From positions 558,001 to 622,000 of the forward strand of contig NZ_CP034449.1 of NCBI RefSeq assembly GCF_003952425.1: a stretch of DNA of 64,000 nucleotides, in the 5' to 3' direction. The notes under the pieces were generated by a model that was not told the DNA's origin, did not search any database, and saw only the letters and a list, made by a program, of their open reading frames with translations. The DNA comes from Mesorhizobium sp. M2A.F.Ca.ET.046.03.2.1. GTDB lineage: Bacteria > Pseudomonadota > Alphaproteobacteria > Rhizobiales > Rhizobiaceae. The position numbers and the translations under genes are program-made. Of this stretch, positions 1,152 to 16,410 are shown piece by piece. Position 1 is the first letter of the stretch; every line of letters starts with the position of its first letter.

Positions 1152-2261
1152 TTGGTTAAACTTCGTATGGCCGGCAAGAATTTGCCGGCAGTTTTGAGGG
1201 ATGTCGTTGACTACAGAAAATCAGGCTTGAGCCTGAATCACGTCGTAGGCTGCCCCCTGGACTGCGGTTATTGCGTGCGACATTTGTTCGATAATTACGA
1301 CATGAAGAAACCGCACCTTGTCATGTCAGACCACGATGCGGTCGAAACATTGGTGGCCCACTGGGCTTTTCGAGCAGACACTACGCCGGTTCAGATCTTC
1401 AACAGAGCGACCGACCCCTTTCTGACTGGGGTCAAAGATCACCTCTTTGCTTGCCTCGAGGCGTTAGATGCCAGGGGCCTGTCCAACCCTGTGCTGGTAA
1501 TCACACGCTGGCATATCGCACCAGACGATGTCGCTCGACTTGAACGTCTATCCAACCTGCGTGTGACTGTCCTGATCACTTGGTCCGGCATTGATGACCA
1601 ACGCATAGAACCCGTCGACAGCGCAATCGCTGAGCGGTCGTTAGCCACCCTTGCCAACCATAAGACGCGAACTAAGTCGGTCCTCTATTGGAGACCATTG
1701 ATAGCGGGAATAAACGACACCGATCGGCATCTGCGCCGCGCAAGTGAGTTAGCCGAAATGGCAGATGCCACCGCCTTTACCGGCCTTTTCTATAGAGAGC
1801 AGATAAGAGCCCACTTTGAGGCCGCAGGCGTGCCCGAAATGTATGACACCATTGCACGCCGCAAGATCTTACCGCGAGAATTGGAGCTGAAGTTGATCGC
1901 CGCCTTCGGAGTGCGGCCCTTGTTCCGAAAGACTTCATGTGCAGTCGCATTCGCCCATGGCACCGCGGACTACAATGGCCATTTTGGCATTCGAGAAGTT
2001 TGCGACATTTGTCCGGCCAGCCAATTGGCGGTGTGCGCGCGGCATCATGTGAGACCAGACCCCGAAACTGTCGCAGCCCTTGCGGCATCAGTCGGTTTGG
2101 ACACCTCCGATATTCGCATCAGCGAACGTAACATCGAAGTTCTCGGTAGCCAGGAGCAGCAGCGGTACTTTATGCAGCATGCACTGAATTATCAGGTGCA
2201 TGATCGAGCGCAGCCGCACCACCACGGCAGACACGGCAGAGCAGAAGTCGGATGGGAATAG
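1152..2261 (+). CDS. Radical SAM protein (spore photoproduct lyase-like superfamily)
   Basis: This 369-residue protein carries the radical SAM cluster motif CPLDCGYC (Cys34, Cys38, Cys41; C-x3-C-x2-C), which binds a [4Fe-4S] cluster that cleaves S-adenosylmethionine. The following barrel segments (IFNRATDPF near 82-90, VLVITRW near 114-120) resemble the SPL/Rv2578c branch rather than viperin. The C-terminal third holds four more cysteines (263, 284, 287, 295), which could bind an auxiliary Fe-S cluster or zinc. The start is TTG with GGAGGGG five bases upstream; an ATG at 1167 is an alternative. It is the first gene of a four-gene operon and overlaps the exonuclease gene by 10 bases. The substrate is unknown; DNA, RNA or a nucleotide is plausible given the neighbours. 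Confidence 0.8.
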   Translation: MVKLRMAGKNLPAVLRDVVDYRKSGLSLNHVVGCPLDCGYCVRHLFDNYDMKKPHLVMSDHDAVETLVAHWAFRADTTPVQIFNRATDPFLTGVKDHLFACLEALDARGLSNPVLVITRWHIAPDDVARLERLSNLRVTVLITWSGIDDQRIEPVDSAIAERSLATLANHKTRTKSVLYWRPLIAGINDTDRHLRRASELAEMADATAFTGLFYREQIRAHFEAAGVPEMYDTIARRKILPRELELKLIAAFGVRPLFRKTSCAVAFAHGTADYNGHFGIREVCDICPASQLAVCARHHVRPDPETVAALAASVGLDTSDIRISERNIEVLGSQEQQRYFMQHALNYQVHDRAQPHHHGRHGRAEVGWE

Positions 2262-2842
2262 AGCACGAGACTTTTTTCGTCATAGACGTCGAAGGGAGCG
2301 GAGCCAATCCACCTGAAATCGTTGAGCTTGCCATCACCCCAATCAACGACCTCAAAATCGGAGCGCGGCGGTGGGAGTGGCGCGTGCAACCAAACGGACC
2401 AATAGCCGCCGCTGCAACGCGAATCCACGGTATCACGCTAGACGACGTTGCTGAGGCGCCTTCGATTGACGACATCGCAGGCGAGATAATGACTTGGACG
2501 GATGGACAGAGAGTCGTTGGCCACAATGTGCGCGTCGAGCTCGAAATCATTTCCAGGTCGATCCCCGACTGGAGGCCTTCGATGGCAATTGACACGCTTC
2601 GGTTGGCGAAGGCCACTCGTCCGGGGATGCGGTCCTATGGGCTCGAGAATCTCAGTCAGGCTTTGCACATTTCAGAAGAAGCGGAACGACTTACCGGAGG
2701 ACACCATCACTCGGCGGCCTTCGATACAGTAGTCACCGCGCTTCTATTCATCGAACTCGTCTCAAGCATTCCTGCCGCCTCAAGAATGGCCGCTTTGATG
2801 GATGCCGATATCCTCAACAATCGCCAAGGGGTGCTGTTGTGA
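2252..2842 (+). CDS. DEDDh-type 3'-5' exonuclease (DnaQ/RNase T-like)
   Basis: This is a 196-residue single-domain exonuclease. Motif I is FVIDVEGSG with Asp12 and Glu14. Motif II is the HN region around 91-96, where the usual Asp is Glu96 (HNVRVE). Motif III is HSAAFD with His153 and Asp158, the HxxxxD spacing of DEDDh enzymes. The family removes nucleotides from 3' ends of DNA or RNA with two metal ions. The gene starts inside the end of the radical SAM gene and overlaps the next gene by GTGA, so translation is probably coupled. No polymerase domain is attached. The Asp-to-Glu change in motif II could lower or alter activity. Confidence 0.8.
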   Translation: MGIEHETFFVIDVEGSGANPPEIVELAITPINDLKIGARRWEWRVQPNGPIAAAATRIHGITLDDVAEAPSIDDIAGEIMTWTDGQRVVGHNVRVELEIISRSIPDWRPSMAIDTLRLAKATRPGMRSYGLENLSQALHISEEAERLTGGHHHSAAFDTVVTALLFIELVSSIPAASRMAALMDADILNNRQGVLL

Positions 2843-3432
2843 AGAAGCCTCCCTTCATGATCGGAATCGCTGGAACACATTCAACCGGCAAATCTACCTT
2901 TGTCGCCAAAGCAGCCCAAACACTTGAAGGTCGCGGCTTCAGCGTAGGCCAGATCGGTGATCTCGCCACCAAGGCACGCGAAGCGGGTTTTCCTATCCTC
3001 ACTGATCACACGTACGAAAGCACCTTGTGGATCATCGCCGAAGGGATGCGGCAGGAGGCCGAGGCGTTGCTTACCAACGACGTCGTTCTGGTCGATCGTC
3101 CCGTTCCGGACGCCTTGGGATACCTCAAGGCGGCGCTGGAGGTTTCATCGCGCGAGATCAGTGGGGAACGACTGTCAGAATTGCAGACAATCGTCGCTGC
3201 CCGTGCCACACGCTACGATATGCTCATAATCACCGAGTTGGACCATGCCATTCCACTCGGCCCAGAGCGTGACACAAACGAGACCTTTCGAGTAGCGGCA
3301 GGCCACCATGTGACGGCTGTGATCGAAAAGGTCCGGCCTCAGGCCATTCGCATGACGTCAAAGAATCCCGACGAAGTCGCCGCTGCAGCCGTCGAAGAGG
3401 TTGTTCGCCATTTCAGCAAAGGAGGCTCTTGA
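2839..3432 (+). CDS. P-loop NTPase, nucleoside kinase/NadR-like (AAA_28 type)
   Basis: The 197-residue protein starts with a classical Walker A, GTHSTGKS (12-19). It has a short Walker B-like strand followed by Asp-Arg (VVLVDRPVPDAL), as in NadR-type and deoxynucleoside kinase-like AAA_28 proteins. The size fits a small-molecule kinase better than a motor ATPase. GTG is the start, sharing GTGA with the stop of the exonuclease gene. As part of the operon it may phosphorylate the product or substrate of the radical SAM enzyme, or act as a sensor; neither is shown by the sequence. Confidence 0.7.
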   Translation: MKKPPFMIGIAGTHSTGKSTFVAKAAQTLEGRGFSVGQIGDLATKAREAGFPILTDHTYESTLWIIAEGMRQEAEALLTNDVVLVDRPVPDALGYLKAALEVSSREISGERLSELQTIVAARATRYDMLIITELDHAIPLGPERDTNETFRVAAGHHVTAVIEKVRPQAIRMTSKNPDEVAAAAVEEVVRHFSKGGS

Positions 3433-3926
3433 TGTCCTTGTTGGAAGTTCGAACTACCATCAACACGATGATCAATTCCGCCGCCAGCGGCACGGATATC
3501 GGCACCAAGGCTTTGATCGACGCCTTGCGAAAAGATCATGCCGCCGTCATTTCGGCCGCGCGGTCAGAACTCGAAACCATCGCGTTGACCAAGATTGTTA
3601 ACGAAGTTGCCCGTCGCCGCGTCCGAGAGGTGCCAGGTCAGGGCGAGCTTTTCGGTGCTTATTCCGGCATTTGGCAAACCATTGCCGTCAAAAACCGCGG
3701 CCCGGACGGCAAACTGCGCTATGACCGTAAGGCGATAAATGACGCTACGCCCGAAGAGGTTGAAGCCTGGCTGCAAGAACACACACAAGCGCGCCGCAGT
3801 CAGCCGGAGAAATTTGCCGGTATGCGTCGTATGCTAGACGATGCAAGGAACGTCGGTGGGGCCAAAGGCGCCACCATCGGCAGCCTCCTAGCGGAGAAGC
3901 GCCGCCGAGAGTTGGCTGCGGATTAG
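3432..3926 (+). CDS. Small charged helical protein of unknown function, last gene of the radical SAM operon
   Basis: This 164-residue protein has no family I recognise. The ATG at 3432 is preferred over the in-frame TTG three bases earlier because GGAGG lies six bases before it; it overlaps the kinase stop by one base. The sequence is rich in Arg, Glu and Ala. It has a predicted helical N-terminal half, a central GELFGAYSGIW-like segment and a basic C-terminus ending EKRRRELAAD. There is no signal peptide or membrane segment. The basic surface could suit nucleic-acid or partner binding. It faces the DUF2235 gene tail to tail across 18 bases. Confidence 0.6.
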   Translation: MSLLEVRTTINTMINSAASGTDIGTKALIDALRKDHAAVISAARSELETIALTKIVNEVARRRVREVPGQGELFGAYSGIWQTIAVKNRGPDGKLRYDRKAINDATPEEVEAWLQEHTQARRSQPEKFAGMRRMLDDARNVGGAKGATIGSLLAEKRRRELAAD

Positions 3927-3944: not shown

Positions 3945-5171
3945 TCAGTTGCGCCCAGACATTGATCCGGCTGAACTCTTGGGGGCCTCCGGCGTAGCCG
4001 GACCCGTGTTGGAAAATAGAATGTTGGCCGGGCGATAGTCGCTTACGAGAGCGTGCCGTTTATCGACCGAAGAGTGGACAAGCAGGTTTTCAGGTAACCG
4101 CCTTGGTTCTGCCTGCGGCAGGTACCAGCCCAAGATTGAGCACCGCTTCCATTCTCGCCATCTCACACATTTTGGAAGCAGCTCCAAAACCCACCACGCC
4201 CATGTAAGCGAATTGTGCAGTTCGGCTGTTGCATCTTGCGCCACATAAAACTTCCTTCCGTCAGGCAGTGGCTTGCCGTTCACCAGACACTCATACATGA
4301 CGGTGTCTGTAAGGAGACCCTGGCCGATAGCCTCTTCGATGAGCCACGCTAGCGGAAATTTCGAAAGTCCGCTCTCTTCCTCGGGGTACCCACCGCCAAC
4401 ATCAGAATGCACACCTGCAAACCCCATCTCTACGACGTCCTGTGCGATTTTGGATGGTGGATTCGCGAAGGGCAGCGGTTCATAAATTTGGTCTGGTTCC
4501 CATTTGTTAAGGCGAAACATACGACGACGTTCGTCAATCGCCACGGCGTGGCGAAAACAGCGAACGCTTGGATTTTTGCGCGTGTACGGCAAAGTACGTA
4601 GGCTTGGCAGATAGAGCCGATCCGGACGCGGCACGATCATCGACGCCACAGTATCCCAAACACCCAAGAAATGGATCGTGGCGTGCCGCGCACCCATGAC
4701 GCGGCCAAAGTCCCAGGCGATCTTCAGTTTGTTGTCCTGGCTTGCTCGTTTGTAGGCCGTCAATGCGTAGCTGACCACATTTAGCTGCGCCGGCCGGAGC
4801 AAACCAACCATGTGGATCATGCCCGCGACCGCCCGCACCGTGTAGGAACCGCGACTGAAGCCGAATAAAAATATCCTGTCGCCTTCTTGATAGTGCTCAC
4901 AGACGAAGCGGTACGCATCTGCGATGTTGTCATCCAGTCCGTAGCCCGTCGCCAGCCCGAAAATCGCCTTGGCGTCCTGAAAGACCCGTCCCCATTCACT
5001 GCTTAGTCCGATCGTGCCGACACCGGCATTATAGTAGACAATCTGTTGCTCGTTTTTGACGGCTATCCGAAACAGCTTCAGCACATTGGAGAGGTCACCC
5101 TCGACCTGGTTCCCCGTGCCATCACAGAGAACAACGATGTTCTTACCCATCCGCTTCCGATCCGCCGCCAT
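3945..5171 (-). CDS. DUF2235 / Tle1-like alpha/beta-hydrolase (predicted lipase or esterase)
   Basis: This 408-residue protein begins with the DUF2235 signature: a beta strand IVVLCDGTGNQ, then YYNAGVG. It carries the nucleophile elbow GFSRG (Gly-x-Ser-x-Gly) in the segment IFLFGFSRGSYTVRA. DUF2235 proteins include type VI secretion phospholipase effectors and cytoplasmic hydrolases. No T6SS genes (Hcp, VgrG, PAAR) are visible nearby, so this is more likely a cytoplasmic effector of the local operon. The longest frame starts at 5171; an ATG at 5150 (MGKN) with GGAAG close upstream is an alternative. It is the last gene of a three-gene minus-strand operon, 79 bases after the MBL gene. Confidence 0.75.
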   Translation of the reverse strand: MAADRKRMGKNIVVLCDGTGNQVEGDLSNVLKLFRIAVKNEQQIVYYNAGVGTIGLSSEWGRVFQDAKAIFGLATGYGLDDNIADAYRFVCEHYQEGDRIFLFGFSRGSYTVRAVAGMIHMVGLLRPAQLNVVSYALTAYKRASQDNKLKIAWDFGRVMGARHATIHFLGVWDTVASMIVPRPDRLYLPSLRTLPYTRKNPSVRCFRHAVAIDERRRMFRLNKWEPDQIYEPLPFANPPSKIAQDVVEMGFAGVHSDVGGGYPEEESGLSKFPLAWLIEEAIGQGLLTDTVMYECLVNGKPLPDGRKFYVAQDATAELHNSLTWAWWVLELLPKCVRWREWKRCSILGWYLPQAEPRRLPENLLVHSSVDKRHALVSDYRPANILFSNTGPATPEAPKSSAGSMSGRN

Positions 5172-5250: not shown

Positions 5251-6606
5251 CTACTGGAAGAGGACATCGATATAGCCCGTCGCCTTTCTGATCCGCTCAA
5301 AATCGGTACGAAGCGGCTGAGCCTGGTTTAGCCAGTCGGCCTCATAGGCAGCAAAGTCGGCTGGATCTTTGGGTTTGAAATCCTTCAAGAAAGGTTTGTA
5401 GATCCTCGGGTCGCGGATGCGCCGCGCAATTTCAGTCATTAGCAACGCTCGGGGTATGGTGGGGTACTTGCCACGCTCTGTGGAGACAACAGCTGTCGCC
5501 TTGGCTTGTTCACCGTTTTTCGGCAGTGGCAGTATCGCTTCTAGAATGTCGACAGCCTCGGTCTTCTTTTTATTACCCATGTCCCACGGCGTTGCATTCT
5601 CGCTGCCGTGATGGCCGATTTTCAGGAAATCCACTGGCTTGCCCAGGATTTCCTTGCGCTTGTTCCACATCACGTTCCAGGAACCATTCATCTTGCCCAG
5701 TTTGAAATCGCTGCTCCATTCAGCGTCGCCCACGAACAACAAGCGCTTGTCGCTCCATTCGATCAAAAGAACGACGCTCGAATTGTTCTTAAGTTTGCCG
5801 TCTAGCTCGGCAAAGGCGAGTCCGTTTGACTGCATACGCGCGCGAAGTGAGCGAAAGGACGCCGGACTGATGTTGCCCGGCAAAGGCGCATCCGCTGACG
5901 TGAAGGCTACCTCTTTGAGTTGGCCATCCTCGGCGTCGTCGTCGGCTGCGTCAAACGCGGTCGGACCAATTACCCCCCGCAGGGCGTTCTCAGCGGTCTT
6001 GCCAAGATAGAAGCCATCGAAATCAGACTCCGGACCGATCACATTGATCGTTGCGTTGTGCAATTTGATGTCGTGCGTGAGATTTGTTTCACCGGCACTG
6101 ACGTAGGTGGGCTCAGCTCCCTTGAGCAGCGTGCTGCGCAACGTTTCCATCGCGCCCTTATTGTTGATCTGAAATACCGATAGCAGTTCGGCGACGCGCG
6201 GGCTTAGATCTTTGCCAAGAGCTTCCAGGCTCTGCATCGCCTTCTGCGCAACAGCTCTGACTTTGCGCGTCTTGCCCGCCTGAGGGTGTTTTGGGTTCAT
6301 GACGCAGTTCATCCAAACGGCGCCTACTTTGACATCTTCGAAAATCTTGGGGTCGAATCCCGCAATGTGATCCTTATGCTCGTGGGTCACGACGACCAGA
6401 TCGAGACGCTTCTTGCTACCTTCGGTTGGAAGTTCACTCTTCAGTTGCTCAATCGCTTTGGTAAGCAGCCCCCCGTCGCTCCAGGTACCGCAATCGATCA
6501 GCATATGAAAAGCTTTCTCATTCGCATCAGTCTCGCCTGGGATGCGCACGTAAATGCAATCGCCTAGGCCAACGTCATAGAGACGGATTAGGAGCTCATT
6601 TGCCAT
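5251..6606 (-). CDS. Metallo-beta-lactamase-fold hydrolase (ComEC C-terminal domain-like)
   Basis: The 451-residue protein has the MBL metal motif HEHKDH (75-80), a later strand with LLFVGDAEW and a GHHGSENAT motif, an arrangement typical of ComEC-type MBL domains. It has no membrane segments, unlike full ComEC, so it is a soluble hydrolase, perhaps a nuclease or phosphodiesterase. The start codon overlaps the end of the metalloprotease gene by 19 bases, with GGAG about eight bases upstream, showing translational coupling. Soluble ComEC-like MBL proteins next to protease genes are a recurring theme in bacterial defence loci (established knowledge); a protease-activated nuclease is a reasonable hypothesis. 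Confidence 0.78.
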   Translation of the reverse strand: MANELLIRLYDVGLGDCIYVRIPGETDANEKAFHMLIDCGTWSDGGLLTKAIEQLKSELPTEGSKKRLDLVVVTHEHKDHIAGFDPKIFEDVKVGAVWMNCVMNPKHPQAGKTRKVRAVAQKAMQSLEALGKDLSPRVAELLSVFQINNKGAMETLRSTLLKGAEPTYVSAGETNLTHDIKLHNATINVIGPESDFDGFYLGKTAENALRGVIGPTAFDAADDDAEDGQLKEVAFTSADAPLPGNISPASFRSLRARMQSNGLAFAELDGKLKNNSSVVLLIEWSDKRLLFVGDAEWSSDFKLGKMNGSWNVMWNKRKEILGKPVDFLKIGHHGSENATPWDMGNKKKTEAVDILEAILPLPKNGEQAKATAVVSTERGKYPTIPRALLMTEIARRIRDPRIYKPFLKDFKPKDPADFAAYEADWLNQAQPLRTDFERIRKATGYIDVLFQ

Positions 6607-8516
6607 CTCAGGGCTCCAAGGTTTGGATCATCGTCATCAATGTGAAAATGGGGAGAAAGCTCGAAACGGATCGATCCCTCGACCTCCCGCGCGATCAACG
6701 GTGGCGTAAGCTCGCCAACAAGACCTTCAGGTCCGCCTAGCTCCTGCCCGACCATCCCCTCTTCAATTCTGCGAGTCAGCGCATCGAGATACGATCCTCT
6801 GCGCTTAATTCCCGCATCCAGTTCGGCTAACGCGTCTTCATCAGTTTTAAAGAGCTTCTTACGCTTTGCCCGCCTTTCCATCGCGACAAGCGAGGGGGTG
6901 GAAGGCTCACTCCCAGGCTTGCGCGTCCAGTAAAGTAAGCTGCCGTTCACATCGAAAACCATTGTCCCGCCGCACAGCAGGCTGGTTGTCTTGCCGCTAA
7001 AAGCACCGAAACGAGTTCCATCGAGGATGAGTTCTTCACGCCATAGATATTGAAGAATGATCTGCTTGGGCTGGAAAAGCCCCATGCCGACCATTTTTCG
7101 CGCGGAAAAGACCTCATCCACGATGATGTCGACATGATCAGGGATGAAAAGCTTGTCTCGATTGTCATCAAGGTACCGGTACGCCTCGGCTCTCGAGCTG
7201 CCTATAAGTTCGGGATCATGAGCAATCGCTCCTGGCATACGGTCGTACAAAGGAGCAGGCTCGAGCAGAGCCTTGCCTTCGTCACAGCTGATGATCTCTC
7301 GCGCGACAAATATGTCGGCAATCATCTTGCGGTAACCGTGCGGGTCGGTCGGATCGGCGATCGCAAGGTTGCGCAACACAGCGCGGGCGTAGTCATTGAA
7401 CGTCACCTCAACCGGCGGCAACAGATCGAGCGCTTGAATGGCAATCACCTGCATGCGAGCCGAAGCGTATTGAAGCGATTGAGCCGGGGTAAGCGTATCT
7501 CCGCTGGTTTTTTCGCGCTTCAGATACTGCTCGGTTAGCGCCACGAAGATGTCGAACATCGAAGCCGTCATCACTTGCGATAGCTCATGCGGCTCAATTT
7601 GATCCTTGTAGTCGCTCATTCTGCTCGGATTTGCGGCGCTACGCAGGTAGGGCTGTCCATTGACAGCTTGGCCAAACTGAGCCGCAACGGCTCCAATGAG
7701 CTGCTGGCCGGTCTTTGTCTTCAGATCGCCTTTCGTTCGGACAGCCAGCTCCCGCCGAAAGGAGTTGTTCCGCAGGGTCATCAAGATTGCAGTCAAGTCG
7801 CCAAGAAATTCGTGGAAGGCGCCTGTTTGCGGTGAAACCGCCTCCAAATAGTAGGGCCTGATGCCGTCCAAGACGGCATGACCGAATTCATGATTAACGA
7901 TATCGCTTGAAAGGCAGGTGTGAATCCGCTGCCCCTCCTCGTCATCGAAATAATAGAATTGGAGCGACTTGCTCTCGCGGTCATAGTAGGCGTTTGCGGC
8001 ATAACCGGCATTTGGCGTCACCAGCAGCCGGTTGCCTTCAAAGGCCCAAGAAATACGCCGGCCAAGCCCACTTGGGCTCTCGAAGAAGTCGAGCGTGCTT
8101 TGCAAGATTGCCCAGGTGCTGACCTGTCGAAAATGGACCGTGTCCTTCAGCGACTTGTCGATCTTCCGCCCCTTTGGATCGAGAAAGGCTTTCTCATCGC
8201 GGCTCCATTCGGCCGGCTTTTCCAACTTGTTTGCCGTGCTGTCGTAATCGACAATTGCAAACCTGGCGCTTGTCGGCCCATCACCGATGCGGGGCTCCCA
8301 AGGCACATAGAAATCGCTGTCGATTTCAAGCCCCGGATTTTCTTTCGCAACAAGTGGATCCTTATAGTAGGTATCTATAGGGATTTTGAGCCCCAGCTTC
8401 CTTTGGGTCGCGCCGTCCAAGAACCGCCGCGACGCATAAACATCTCTCATTTCGGCAGCAGTGAGCTGTGCCTTGAGCACTTCTTTCTTCTGGCTGATTT
8501 CGCTTTGTTTGGCCAA
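6588..8516 (-). CDS. Gluzincin-type zinc metalloprotease with large C-terminal extension
   Basis: Counted from the preferred start, this 642-residue protein has a zinc-protease motif HEFGH (His209, Glu210, His213). About 23 residues later is a Glu-x3-Asp segment (Glu236, Asp240, in FHEFLGDLTA), matching the third zinc ligand and the Asp of M4-like gluzincins. No signal peptide is visible, so it probably acts in the cytoplasm, unusual for an M4-like enzyme. I chose TTG at 8516 because AGGGGG lies six bases upstream and MAKQSEISQ is a natural N-terminus; an upstream TTG at 8564 is possible. The C-terminal 350 residues match no family I know. It is the first gene of the protease, MBL, DUF2235 operon. 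Confidence 0.7.
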   Translation of the reverse strand: MAKQSEISQKKEVLKAQLTAAEMRDVYASRRFLDGATQRKLGLKIPIDTYYKDPLVAKENPGLEIDSDFYVPWEPRIGDGPTSARFAIVDYDSTANKLEKPAEWSRDEKAFLDPKGRKIDKSLKDTVHFRQVSTWAILQSTLDFFESPSGLGRRISWAFEGNRLLVTPNAGYAANAYYDRESKSLQFYYFDDEEGQRIHTCLSSDIVNHEFGHAVLDGIRPYYLEAVSPQTGAFHEFLGDLTAILMTLRNNSFRRELAVRTKGDLKTKTGQQLIGAVAAQFGQAVNGQPYLRSAANPSRMSDYKDQIEPHELSQVMTASMFDIFVALTEQYLKREKTSGDTLTPAQSLQYASARMQVIAIQALDLLPPVEVTFNDYARAVLRNLAIADPTDPHGYRKMIADIFVAREIISCDEGKALLEPAPLYDRMPGAIAHDPELIGSSRAEAYRYLDDNRDKLFIPDHVDIIVDEVFSARKMVGMGLFQPKQIILQYLWREELILDGTRFGAFSGKTTSLLCGGTMVFDVNGSLLYWTRKPGSEPSTPSLVAMERRAKRKKLFKTDEDALAELDAGIKRRGSYLDALTRRIEEGMVGQELGGPEGLVGELTPPLIAREVEGSIRFELSPHFHIDDDDPNLGALRWQMSS

Positions 8517-8885
8517 TCCACACCCCCTGCAGACGACGGCCGAATTGAGCGGCCGCAAACCCAAATGAAGCTTTCTGATTCCGACACTTCGCGAGAAGCG
8601 TCGCAGACCTAGGCCGGCACGAACCGGGAACCTAGTCAGATGGCGTCAAATTCGCCGGAAAGTAAAAACGAACGCCGCGCAACGCGCGACGCGACAGTCC
8701 TCCCAAGCAAAAAATAGTACTTACCTATCCTATTCTAATCAAGAGAGGAATTCATGGGGAGAATATTCCCCCCATACTTATTTTCAGTAATCAGTTGTTC
8801 CATCAGTGGCTTGCCGCCCGGAGCCTGCAAGCGGCGATGTCAAGAGCTCGGTGTGCAGCGGGAGCTTTCGCTAATCAGACGTAGG
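8517..8885. other. Intergenic region upstream of the metalloprotease operon
   Basis: No gene is evident between the end of the GIY-YIG-like gene and the protease start. The segment around 8700-8750 is distinctly AT-rich against a GC-rich background and holds the promoter listed separately. A stretch around 8670-8696 is rich in repeated GCGCG steps. Confidence 0.5.
8714..8742 (-). promoter_or_regulatory. Candidate sigma70-type promoter for the metalloprotease operon
   Basis: On the minus strand TTGATT (8742-8737) is followed after exactly 17 bases by TACTAT (8719-8714), five of six and four of six matches to the -35 and -10 consensus, in an AT-rich island. Transcription would start near 8706 and read into the protease gene about 190 bases on. 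Confidence 0.45.
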
Positions 8886-14341: not shown

Positions 14342-15601
14342 ATGTACCTCCGAAGAATAATGCTAAACAACATTCGCGATTTTTCGGACTTTGAAGTCAA
14401 TTTTGAGAATCCGGACGACAAATCAGCCCGCCTTTGGACGCTGCTTGTTGGGGGCAACGGCGTGGGTAAAACCACTCTGCTACGCGCGGTAGCGCTTGGC
14501 TTTGCCTCAGAGGCAGATGCCAATGCAATGATTGCGTCCCCTCTGGCGCGCATGATCAACGATCAGAATAGGCCAGCTTCCATCCATCTCGAGATCTCTG
14601 AAAAGCGAGACGATAAGAATTTCGAGATTCTTGAAACGATCATCGACTGGGTGGACGACCACGAGGCCGTACGCACTATACGCAAACTGCCAAGCTGGGC
14701 CTCGAAGGCCTTCGTTGCTGGCTATGGTGTTGCTCGTATCAGAACAGGCAGAGACAGCGTTCGACCACGGCGTCTCATTGATTCCGCCGAAACCCTATTT
14801 TTTTACGATTCACTTTTGACACCCGTCGAACTGACAATGCGCCGCCTCCAAGATTTCGTCGGTACGGAAAAATATGATCTCGCTATGCGGAACCTCATCG
14901 AGGCGCTCGACCTTCCGCCTCACACGGAGATTAGCTTTCCAGCTGGCGGCGGAGTGGAGATCCGATCCGGGCCCGATAGAGCTCCTCACCGGTTGGAGCA
15001 CTGGGCAGATGGATATAGATTAAACTTCACTTGGATAGCGGATTTCTTCGGTGCCGCGATGGCGGCCGATGCGCTAACGAGAGACGGAACACTCAGAGGC
15101 CTGCTGCTGCTTGACGAGATTGAGCAGCACACACACCCAAACATCCAGGATACGTTGGTTATTGAATTGAAAAAGCTCTGGCCAGAGCTTCAGGTCATTG
15201 CCACCACACACAGTCCACTCGTGGTGTTGGGCACGGACCCTTCGGAATTGGTTGTCCTCAAACGCGACCATTTAGGCAAAGTCAATGCTGAGCTTGGCCC
15301 GTCATCGTTCGTAGGCTTTACAGCAGAGGACATACTCACGGACAAAGCAATTTTTGACACCGACGCTCGCAGCGTCAGCGATAAGGCGATGTTGGACCAG
15401 TATAAGAAATTGACCGAACGAGATGACGACGACCTGCAGCCTGACGAGCGGAAAGAACTCGCCCAACTGAGTTCGCGACTCCGTGGCCTAACTGGTAGGT
15501 CGACTCCGGACGGGCAAGAGGCCTCTCATCGCGCAGTGGACGAGGATGAGGCAAATCTGGTCAATGACCTGAAGGCACTCAGAGAGAAATACGGTCTTTA
15601 A
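14342..15601 (+). CDS. ptuA: Septu-type defence ATPase (PtuA-like, OLD/ABC-ATPase family)
   Basis: The 419-residue ATPase has Walker A GGNGVGKT (37-44) and Walker B LLLLDEIEQHTHP (Asp258, Glu259), then a switch histidine region ATTHSP about 25 residues later. That is the SMC/OLD-like ABC ATPase pattern of PtuA. There is no TOPRIM domain at the C-terminus, which is instead a charged helical tail. It is followed after eight bases by an HNH gene of the PtuB family, the defining pair of Septu anti-phage systems. No reverse transcriptase gene lies upstream, so this is a stand-alone Septu rather than a retron with PtuAB. Septu ATPases are thought to control the partner nuclease. Confidence 0.8.
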   Translation: MYLRRIMLNNIRDFSDFEVNFENPDDKSARLWTLLVGGNGVGKTTLLRAVALGFASEADANAMIASPLARMINDQNRPASIHLEISEKRDDKNFEILETIIDWVDDHEAVRTIRKLPSWASKAFVAGYGVARIRTGRDSVRPRRLIDSAETLFFYDSLLTPVELTMRRLQDFVGTEKYDLAMRNLIEALDLPPHTEISFPAGGGVEIRSGPDRAPHRLEHWADGYRLNFTWIADFFGAAMAADALTRDGTLRGLLLLDEIEQHTHPNIQDTLVIELKKLWPELQVIATTHSPLVVLGTDPSELVVLKRDHLGKVNAELGPSSFVGFTAEDILTDKAIFDTDARSVSDKAMLDQYKKLTERDDDDLQPDERKELAQLSSRLRGLTGRSTPDGQEASHRAVDEDEANLVNDLKALREKYGL

Positions 15602-15609
15602 GGGCTATC

Positions 15610-16410
15610 ATGATTAGACTGTGGCGGAAGCGGCCAAACGGCGAGCGTGTCCATCCCGGAAAGCGTTGGGCAAAGCTGTCTCGAGACGGCAAGGTGAAAG
15701 CGATCGCCGATGGACCCACCCATGTGGTGAGCTCGCAGCTCTATGGGCACGATGACGTCCGGGCGGCCCTCGAAGAACTTACCTATTACAAATGTGCCTA
15801 CTGCGAAACTCCTATAGCTCAATTTGACTGGGACGTTGAGCACTACAGACCGAAAGGCGCCGTCCAGGGCGCGGTGAATCACCCCGGCTACTACTGGCTC
15901 GCTTACGACTGGGACAATCTTCTACCTGCCTGTACCTACTGCAATCAGAGCAGACGGGAAAAGCCGATCTATCGGGTTGCGGCTGTGATGCCCGCCGGGG
16001 GCAAAATGAACCAGTTTCCTCTGTCGGACGAGACAAAACGAGCGATGAGCCCTGCTGATGCGCTCTCTAGGGAAGCGCCGCTACTCATCAATCCAGCAAA
16101 AGAGAATCCCGAACCCCATTTCGGCTACCTTCCTGACGGAACTGTCTTTGCCACCACGGGCAGCGTCAAAGCACCGGTGACGATAACTATCCTCAGGTTA
16201 AATCTCTATCGATTGCGACGTGCGCGCCTCGAGGCGCTGAAGGATTTCATCACCGTGCTTGAAATGCGGGAAAACGCAAAAAAGCAGGGCAAACACGCTG
16301 CGGTTATCGAGCTCGAACCAATCGTCGAACGCTTACATGCCGATACGAAGCTCTATGCAGGGATTAAGCGCTATTTCGCTAGAAATCCGACGGCCTACGG
16401 GTTTGCCTGA
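15610..16410 (+). CDS. ptuB: Septu-type HNH endonuclease (PtuB-like)
   Basis: This 266-residue protein has a complete HNH module: Cys62-x2-Cys65 (KCAYCE), VEHYRPKG with His78, and LLPACTYCNQSR with Cys108-x2-Cys111 and the final Asn112. The EHYRPKG signature followed by a tyrosine-rich YYWLAYDWDNLLP segment is characteristic of PtuB and the related retron-associated HNH family. The start is eight bases after the ATPase stop, so both are one operon. In Septu the ATPase-nuclease complex degrades nucleic acid during phage infection. The C-terminal half after about residue 130 is helical. Confidence 0.82.
   Translation: MIRLWRKRPNGERVHPGKRWAKLSRDGKVKAIADGPTHVVSSQLYGHDDVRAALEELTYYKCAYCETPIAQFDWDVEHYRPKGAVQGAVNHPGYYWLAYDWDNLLPACTYCNQSRREKPIYRVAAVMPAGGKMNQFPLSDETKRAMSPADALSREAPLLINPAKENPEPHFGYLPDGTVFATTGSVKAPVTITILRLNLYRLRRARLEALKDFITVLEMRENAKKQGKHAAVIELEPIVERLHADTKLYAGIKRYFARNPTAYGFA

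What the first reader, a model, noticed from the sequence alone, without database searches (positions are those of the whole stretch)
1152..3926. Candidate undescribed four-gene system: radical SAM enzyme, exonuclease, P-loop kinase and small protein
The four genes overlap by 10, 4 and 1 bases, so they are made together. The combination of an SPL-like radical SAM protein, a DEDDh nuclease and a NadR-like kinase does not match any named defence system known to me. Prokaryotic viperins (established knowledge) sit beside nucleotide kinases and make chain-terminating nucleotides, but this radical SAM enzyme lacks the viperin signature. A modified nucleotide, with kinase for activation and exonuclease for target or clearance, is one inference; repair of damaged DNA is another.
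Basis: partly seen in the sequence, partly recalled or inferred. Interest (0 to 1): 0.78.

Follow-up and report, generated by a model that had tools for sequence, protein, structure and literature searches.

The report
Radical-SAM, exonuclease and kinase gene cassette
A Mesorhizobium genome carries a three-gene cassette, kept in the same order in distant bacteria and in some relatives sitting on plasmids beside anti-virus genes, that probably makes a toxic DNA building-block together with an enzyme that cleans it out of the cell's own DNA; its function has not been tested.

Summary
Three genes (1152-3432: radical SAM enzyme, DEDDh 3'-5' exonuclease, P-loop kinase) overlap by 10 and 4 bases and form a conserved unit: of 63 loci of this radical SAM family (Alpha- and Gammaproteobacteria, Actinomycetota, one cyanobacterium, viral contigs) 62 have the exonuclease and 58 the kinase next to it, and the proteins co-vary. 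Gene 4 is not core (7 relatives, the named ones Mesorhizobium). Relatives carry an aldo/keto reductase (36), an HD protein (4), or a CMP-hydroxymethylase-like protein with NDP kinase (20); one has a true thymidylate kinase in the kinase slot. Around seven alphaproteobacterial plasmid copies lie Gabija, CBASS, Shedu and dGTPase genes, RefSeq naming such genes at four of the seven; control stretches show fewer and other families. PADLOC does not know the trio; ten literature searches found no description. Best reading: a mobile nucleotide-analogue module, working like viperin with its kinase but with an unrelated radical SAM enzyme and its own exonuclease for self-protection. Substrate, product and anti-phage activity are inferred. 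Main rival: nucleoside-antibiotic synthesis, like thmABC.

The parts
1152..2261 (+). Radical SAM enzyme, 369 aa (TTG start; in-frame ATG at 1167)
   Evidence: Open frame; 2214 relatives at E<=0.001; AlphaFold2 model pLDDT 93.3, radical-SAM barrel
1251..1274 (+). CxxxCxxC motif, Cys 34/38/41 (radical SAM [4Fe-4S] ligands)
   Evidence: Invariant in 52 of 52 loci
1938..2036 (+). Second cysteine set Cys 263/284/287/295, probable auxiliary [4Fe-4S] site (inference)
   Evidence: Invariant in 52 of 52 loci and in the 42 rows of A7
2252..2842 (+). DEDDh 3'-5' exonuclease, 196 aa
   Evidence: PF00929 5.2e-15; profile matches ExoX 2.4e-25, PolC exo, DinG, Pol III epsilon
2285..2293 (+). Exo motif I, D12-x-E14
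   Evidence: 52 of 52 loci
2708..2725 (+). Exo motif III, H153...D158
   Evidence: 51 of 52 loci, 1 gap
2839..3432 (+). P-loop nucleotide kinase (AAA_28; thymidylate-kinase-like PHROG), 197 aa
   Evidence: PF13521 3e-8; phrog_2107 thymidylate kinase 2.5e-8
2872..2892 (+). Walker A, GTHSTGK
   Evidence: G11, H13-K17 invariant in the 17 rows of A8 (A8 numbering)
3432..3926 (+). Gene 4, 164 aa, unknown; passenger or local accessory, not core
   Evidence: 7 relatives at E<=0.001; model pLDDT 69.5, no PDB fold match at E<=0.001

Best explanation
A mobile, self-protected nucleotide-analogue module, most likely used against phages or other invading DNA. SHOWN: conserved radical SAM - DEDDh exonuclease - nucleotide kinase order, conserved catalytic residues, co-variation, plasmid carriage, and defence-gene neighbours on several alphaproteobacterial plasmids. 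INFERRED: the radical SAM enzyme (two conserved cysteine sets, so probably two Fe-S clusters) alters a pyrimidine (deoxy)nucleoside monophosphate; in Streptomyces a MilA-like hydroxymethylase prepares the base and an aldo/keto reductase finishes the product; the cassette kinase, then NDP kinase, raise it to the triphosphate; phage polymerases incorporate it and stall; the cassette's exonuclease removes it from the 3' ends of host DNA (self-protection). HD, MazG-like and dGTPase partners would hydrolyse surplus triphosphate. It works LIKE viperin with its kinase but is not a viperin.
For: Gene order 62/63 (exo) and 58/63 (kinase). Mantel correlations over 52 loci: radical SAM-exo 0.93, radical SAM-kinase 0.86, exo-kinase 0.90; 0 of 2000 permutations as high for each pair. 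Catalytic residues conserved. Exo profile nearest to DNA exonucleases (ExoX, PolC, DinG, epsilon). Kinase slot filled by a Pfam thymidylate kinase (2.8e-28) in L019. The Streptomyces TS-like partner matches CMP 5-hydroxymethylase at 1e-73 against 1e-12 for the best true TS and comes with NDP kinase in 20 of 20 loci (PF00334). HD partner weakly dGTPase-like (1.3e-6, under the cut-off). Seven alphaproteobacterial plasmid loci: 84 neighbour genes hit 212 PADLOC families at E<=1e-10; the 25 shown include GajA/GajB, CBASS cyclase/E1-E2/phospholipase, SduA, dGTPase, LmuB and ThsB models. 115 genes from control stretches of the same plasmids hit 81; of the 25 shown 18 are PDC-M02, the rest AbiEi, SoFic, mad3/8, AriA. 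By RefSeq names an anti-phage gene stands at four of seven test loci. Window neighbours: PtuA-like, PDC-S41 (SLFN-type helicase), LmuA-like, PDC-S71. Rare and patchy: 3 full copies in 146 Mesorhizobium genomes, own included; 24 plasmid records at >=49.9% identity, some of them near-copies. A viral exonuclease removes viperin's ddhC from RNA (PMC9415739, title and abstract start seen in the listing).
Against: No activity data. Kinase specificity is weak: without L019 the profile's best thymidylate-kinase match in the PDB is E 0.043. At three of the seven test plasmids RefSeq names no anti-phage system beyond toxin-antitoxin pairs, helicases, an HNH gene or a DNA methylase; control stretches are not empty (AbiEi antitoxin, Fic). 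The seven actinomycete plasmid regions read name no anti-phage gene, only some toxin-antitoxin pairs, and look partly like natural-product loci. Hydroxymethylase and NDP kinase are confined to named Streptomycetaceae (13 loci) and viral contigs (7); the reductase occurs in 36 of 63 and is fragmentary in some; no one pathway covers all. Five loci lack the family kinase (L022's match is only 43 bits) and one lacks the exonuclease. No match in 50,697 phage records.
Confidence: 0.5

Rival explanations
1. Nucleoside-antibiotic (bacterial competition) cluster: the same chemistry, but the product is exported to kill other bacteria and the exonuclease/HD/MazG proteins are self-resistance.
For: The three-gene thmABC cluster of Photorhabdus (radical SAM, nucleoside kinase, nucleoside triphosphatase that gives self-resistance) makes 4'-thiothymidine, which is incorporated into DNA (PMC12691670; parts 1-3 of 8 and passages read). 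MilA belongs to mildiomycin synthesis (recalled), and Streptomyces loci carry DUF6415 and DUF6302 genes, the former annotated 'natural product biosynthesis'.
Against: I saw no transporter inside the operon in the 15 annotated cassette regions; several alphaproteobacterial copies sit among defence genes.
Confidence: 0.22
2. DNA hypermodification: the cassette makes a modified dNTP that is built into plasmid or prophage DNA to protect it from restriction.
For: Hydroxymethylase and NDP kinase with the kinase in Streptomyces-type loci; plasmid and viral-contig carriage.
Against: A conserved exonuclease is not expected; I recognised no conserved polymerase or dCTPase partner (not searched for systematically); none of 50,697 phage records has it.
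Confidence: 0.12
3. DNA repair: a spore-photoproduct-lyase-like enzyme that reverses a thymine lesion, with an exonuclease for clean-up.
Confidence: 0.07
4. Counter-modification defence: the exonuclease attacks phage DNA carrying hypermodified bases and the radical SAM and kinase process the released nucleotides.
For: DEDDh enzymes release 5'-dNMPs (recalled), a natural kinase substrate; defence-gene neighbours.
Against: Does not explain the hydroxymethylase in Streptomyces-type loci; nothing in the sequence marks recognition of modified DNA.
Confidence: 0.06

Closest known systems
Viperin / prokaryotic viperin (pVip) with neighbouring nucleotide kinase
   Different: 0 PADLOC families at E<=1; extra conserved C-terminal cysteines; near-constant exonuclease partner, often a reductase. 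That viperins sit beside kinases is recalled
thmABC 4'-thiothymidine cluster, Photorhabdus (PMC12691670)
   Same: Radical SAM + nucleoside kinase + a nucleotide-acting enzyme that protects the producer, in a minimal three-gene cluster with a thymidine-type product
   Different: thmC is a triphosphatase, not an exonuclease; the authors report the cluster in Enterobacterales and Vibrio; sequence relation of ThmA to this family not testable here
MilA CMP 5-hydroxymethylase (mildiomycin)
   Same: The TS-like protein of a Streptomyces operon (L078:6846-7859) matches it at 1e-73
   Different: Here it sits in an operon with radical SAM, exonuclease and kinases; absent from the window cassette
DefensePredictor-validated nucleotide-modifying defence genes (PMC13092281, passages read)
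   Same: A thymidylate synthase and a 5-hydroxymethyluracil kinase (and, in a figure legend, a dNMP kinase and an NMAD domain) stand in validated anti-phage systems
   Different: I did not see which of these share one system; 'radical' occurs 0 times in the held text and the 'SAM' passages shown are other words
PADLOC PDC-S48 (candidate defence protein)
   Same: Profile positions 3-181 match the cassette exonuclease at 4.9e-22
   Different: That model is 411 positions long; the rest is not matched

Membership tests
Viperin / pVip | CxxxCxxC radical SAM motif | tested here: met
   Cys 34/38/41 in 52 of 52 loci
Viperin / pVip | Match to the anti-phage library's profiles (that viperin is in PADLOC is recalled) | tested here: not met
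   0 of 5027 PADLOC families at E<=1 for the radical SAM protein
Viperin / pVip | Converts NTP to ddhNTP | not testable with these tools
   Needs enzymology
Spore photoproduct lyase | Sequence match to curated family models (that an SPL model is in the library is recalled) | tested here: not met
   Only TIGR04470 at E 0.015 listed among 18950 NCBIfam models at E<=1
Spore photoproduct lyase | Fold | tested here: inconclusive
DEDDh 3'-5' exonuclease | DxE, acidic motif II, HxxxxD | tested here: met
   D12, E14 52/52; E/D96, H153, D158 51/52 with 1 gap; PF00929 5.2e-15
Thymidylate/dNMP kinase | Sequence match | tested here: inconclusive
   PHROG thymidylate kinase 2.5e-8 and L019 replacement, but PDB TMK only E 0.043 with L019 left out
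CMP 5-hydroxymethylase (MilA), for the Streptomyces partner | Closer to MilA than to TS; Asp where TS has the pyrimidine-reading Asn (role of that residue recalled) | tested here: met
   1e-73 against 1e-12; 'sdvfsf' shared with MilA where TS has 'fnias' (one protein, L078)
thmABC-type cluster | Radical SAM homologous to ThmA | not tested
Any named PADLOC defence system | Core genes match system models | tested here: not met
   Only DEDDh (CRISPR-associated) and PDC-S48 hits, to the exonuclease; none to radical SAM, kinase or gene 4

The most novel reading that the evidence does not exclude
An undescribed family of immune systems that poisons invader DNA synthesis with a radical-SAM-made deoxynucleotide (possibly with an atom inserted from the auxiliary cluster) and carries its own proofreading exonuclease, so that only DNA made by polymerases outside its reach is stopped: an analogue-plus-eraser logic that I do not know from viperins.
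Probability: 0.38. Interest if true: 0.88.

Novelty: new variant of a known kind. Interest (0 to 1): 0.72.

Why it matters
If right, it is a second, independent radical-SAM route to antiviral nucleotides, with self-protection built in as an exonuclease. It would predict a new natural DNA chain terminator (a drug-lead class), give a function to many of the 2214 relatives found, whose given names are 'radical SAM protein', 'DNA repair photolyase' or 'hypothetical protein', and offer a directly testable set of enzymes including a MilA-type hydroxymethylase in an unexpected operon.

Tried and rejected
Gene 4 as core component: rejected. Its AlphaFold model is too poor (pLDDT 69.5) to name a fold; no PDB match at E<=0.001.

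Thymidylate-kinase identity from profile A3 (E 4.7e-7) was withdrawn as circular, because A3 held L019, itself a thymidylate kinase by Pfam; without it E is 0.043.

Cross-phylum transfer: the radical SAM tree does not force it. Within Alphaproteobacteria it looks transferred: Mesorhizobium copies lie in two starred clades (window and L082; L083 and L072) and Labrenzia copies in two (L002; L073).

One search's table picked hits by the wrong column; one search replaces it. The ORF calls were crude and are superseded.

Dropped before the count of 63: L037 (fragment), L069 (27%) and L081 (30%), distant relatives without exonuclease or kinase match at E<=1e-4. Of 40 plasmid records, 16 regions were read around a match (L070-L081, L085-L088; L081 dropped), one around the relic H40, and seven control stretches. 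The co-variation test used 52 of 63 loci (score cuts; L064 left out as near-copy of L015). The defence-neighbour test used 7 alphaproteobacterial plasmids; cut genes and the cassette and HD/reductase genes were left out; PADLOC lists 25 families, so numbers of families, not of systems, were compared. No control stretches were read for the seven actinomycete plasmids. In the genome searches at most four candidates per genome were scored.

Literature: ten searches listed no paper that I recognised as describing this cassette; I opened passages of four (PMC12691670, PMC10853773, PMC13092281, PMC10732462). Subscription papers and preprints are not held.
Full report
What is there. The window is Mesorhizobium (genus from the names of near relatives), on one contig of 7.37 Mb. 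At 1152-3926 four same-strand ORFs overlap by 10, 4 and 1 bases: a radical SAM enzyme (369 aa), a DEDDh exonuclease (196 aa), a P-loop kinase (197 aa) and an unknown protein (164 aa from ATG 3432). Pfam sees the exonuclease (PF00929, 5.2e-15) and the kinase (PF13521, 3e-8); the radical SAM protein is only at 0.15 for PF04055 and gene 4 has nothing.

Is it a system? The radical SAM protein has 2214 relatives at E<=1e-3 among 6968 candidates. The scan of one genome per species gave 37 loci with up to 21 kb each; viral contigs gave 10, 50,697 phage records none, plasmids 40 records, 24 of them at 49.9% identity or more, with some near-copies. With profiles, 63 family loci (window, 36 of 37 genome loci, 9 of 10 viral-contig loci, 15 of 16 plasmid regions, two further Mesorhizobium genomes) show the exonuclease right downstream in 62 and the kinase in 58. 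The exceptions: the Nostoc plasmid lacks the exonuclease; L026, L028, L067 and L068 lack the kinase; L019 has a Pfam thymidylate kinase (2.8e-28) in its slot; L022's kinase match is only 43 bits. Distances between loci co-vary (Mantel 0.93, 0.86, 0.90 on 52 loci; 0 of 2000 permutations as high), while mean identities differ: 60% radical SAM, 42% exonuclease, 40% kinase. The two more distant radical SAM relatives that I examined (L069 27%, L081 30%) have no such partners. The trio is therefore a unit tied to this radical SAM family.

Gene 4 is not part of it: 7 relatives in the protein search, the named ones Mesorhizobium; matches in 5 of 146 Mesorhizobium genomes, own included, three of them remote (21-29%). 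It is absent from the two other Mesorhizobium cassettes and kept in G049, where the radical SAM and exonuclease genes are not found and the kinase is broken.

Accessory genes. An aldo/keto reductase follows in 36 of 63 (fragmentary in some, e.g. L018, L077); an HD protein, weakly dGTPase-like (1.3e-6, under the cut-off), in 4, none of them with the reductase; in 20 (7 genome loci and 6 plasmids, all Streptomycetaceae by name, and 7 viral contigs of untold host) a TS-like protein and an NDP kinase precede the radical SAM gene, always together. The TS-like protein tested (L078) is a MilA relative: CMP 5-hydroxymethylase at 1e-73 against 1e-12 for the best true TS, sharing Asp where TS has Asn (meaning of that residue recalled). 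One plasmid adds a MazG-like protein; one has an anti-phage dGTPase a few genes upstream.

Where it lives. Rare and patchy: 16 of 146 Mesorhizobium genomes match, 3 with full copies (own included) and 13 with only 45-64-bit fragments; only the own genome in 397 of the order and in 398 of the phylum; only the centre genome in 394 of Pantoea's order. On seven alphaproteobacterial plasmids the 84 neighbour genes hit 212 PADLOC families at E<=1e-10, the 25 shown including GajA (4.6e-242) and GajB (1.8e-225), CBASS cyclase, E1-E2 and phospholipase, SduA, dGTPase, LmuB and ThsB models. Stretches of the same size elsewhere on the same plasmids, 115 genes, hit 81; of the 25 shown 18 are PDC-M02 and the rest AbiEi, SoFic, mad3, mad8 and AriA. 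By RefSeq product names, an anti-phage gene (dGTPase, Shedu, CBASS, Shedu) stands at four of the seven test loci, none at the other three (which show toxin-antitoxin pairs, a helicase, a DNA methylase, an HNH gene); among the controls an AbiEi antitoxin and a Fic protein. Numbers are small. In the window the neighbours are PDC-S71, PDC-S41 (SLFN-type helicase), a PtuA-like ATPase with an HNH gene, and an LmuA-like hydrolase, in a stretch of lower GC (0.545 in 1-18 kb against 0.595 beyond 20 kb). The seven actinomycete plasmid regions name no anti-phage gene, only toxin-antitoxin pairs in two, and had no controls. The radical SAM tree puts Mesorhizobium and Labrenzia copies each in two starred clades, which fits transfer among Alphaproteobacteria.

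How it most likely works. Nucleotide-building partners, a nucleotide kinase, a DNA-type proofreading exonuclease, nucleotide hydrolases and a radical SAM enzyme together point to a modified (deoxy)nucleotide triphosphate and its removal from self DNA. Precedents: thmABC makes 4'-thiothymidine, incorporated into DNA, with a triphosphatase as self-resistance (PMC12691670, parts 1-3 of 8 and passages); a thymidylate synthase and a 5-hydroxymethyluracil kinase stand in validated anti-phage systems (PMC13092281, passages); viperins make chain-terminating nucleotides (PMC10732462, passages); a viral exonuclease removes viperin's ddhC from RNA (PMC9415739, listing only). The defence role is inferred from neighbours and mobility, the substrate from partners, the exonuclease's protective role from analogy. 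Probability for the whole statement 0.5; a nucleotide product of some kind I hold at about 0.75.

Novelty. No PADLOC model covers the combination, and ten full-text searches listed no description that I recognised, within an open-licence library without preprints. I call it a new variant of a known kind (toxic-nucleotide immunity), with a categorically new reading left open.

Noticed in passing
L048-L059 (Mesorhizobium genomes); NZ_AP023255.1 ~482852-483022: Twelve fetched loci (of 13 fragment matches) keep a 56-59 aa relic of the radical SAM gene, 11 of the 12 with a stop inside, with no exonuclease or kinase match in the ~1.5 kb fetched on each side. On the plasmid the relic lies between an isopentenyl-diphosphate isomerase gene and an MFS gene, near virD4: a decayed cassette copy, perhaps in symbiosis islands.
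   Followed up: partly
kinase relatives P0130, P0131, P0132 (contigs 36726, 69177, 274738): Contigs with a full-length cassette kinase (83-85%) but no equally close radical SAM protein among the 120 listed: the radical SAM gene may be lost often, as in G049, which would fit a costly product.
   Followed up: no
window 14342-16410: PtuA-like ATPase (PADLOC 1.9e-40) with a gene directly after it that has a sub-cut-off HNH match (0.0015): Septu-like pair.
   Followed up: no
window 5251-8564 (-): MBL-fold protein (PADLOC LmuA 5.3e-22, Avs1a 1.1e-8) overlapping a 658-aa protein with a weak M4/M36 peptidase match: possible MBL-peptidase defence pair.
   Followed up: no
window 3945-5171 (-): Tle1-like phospholipase catalytic domain (PF09994, 4.9e-77) right after the cassette on the other strand; secretion genes were not looked for.
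   Followed up: no
L044:5438-7520 (-) in G026: A remote gene-4 homologue (29%) overlaps a 505-aa gene with a sub-cut-off Mrr-type nuclease match (0.0096): gene 4 may belong to another two-gene unit.
   Followed up: partly
L084:13982-18782: Upstream neighbours: VRR-NUC protein, Mrr_cat protein and a 785-aa protein without Pfam match at E<=0.01, adding to the defence-like character of the region.
   Followed up: no
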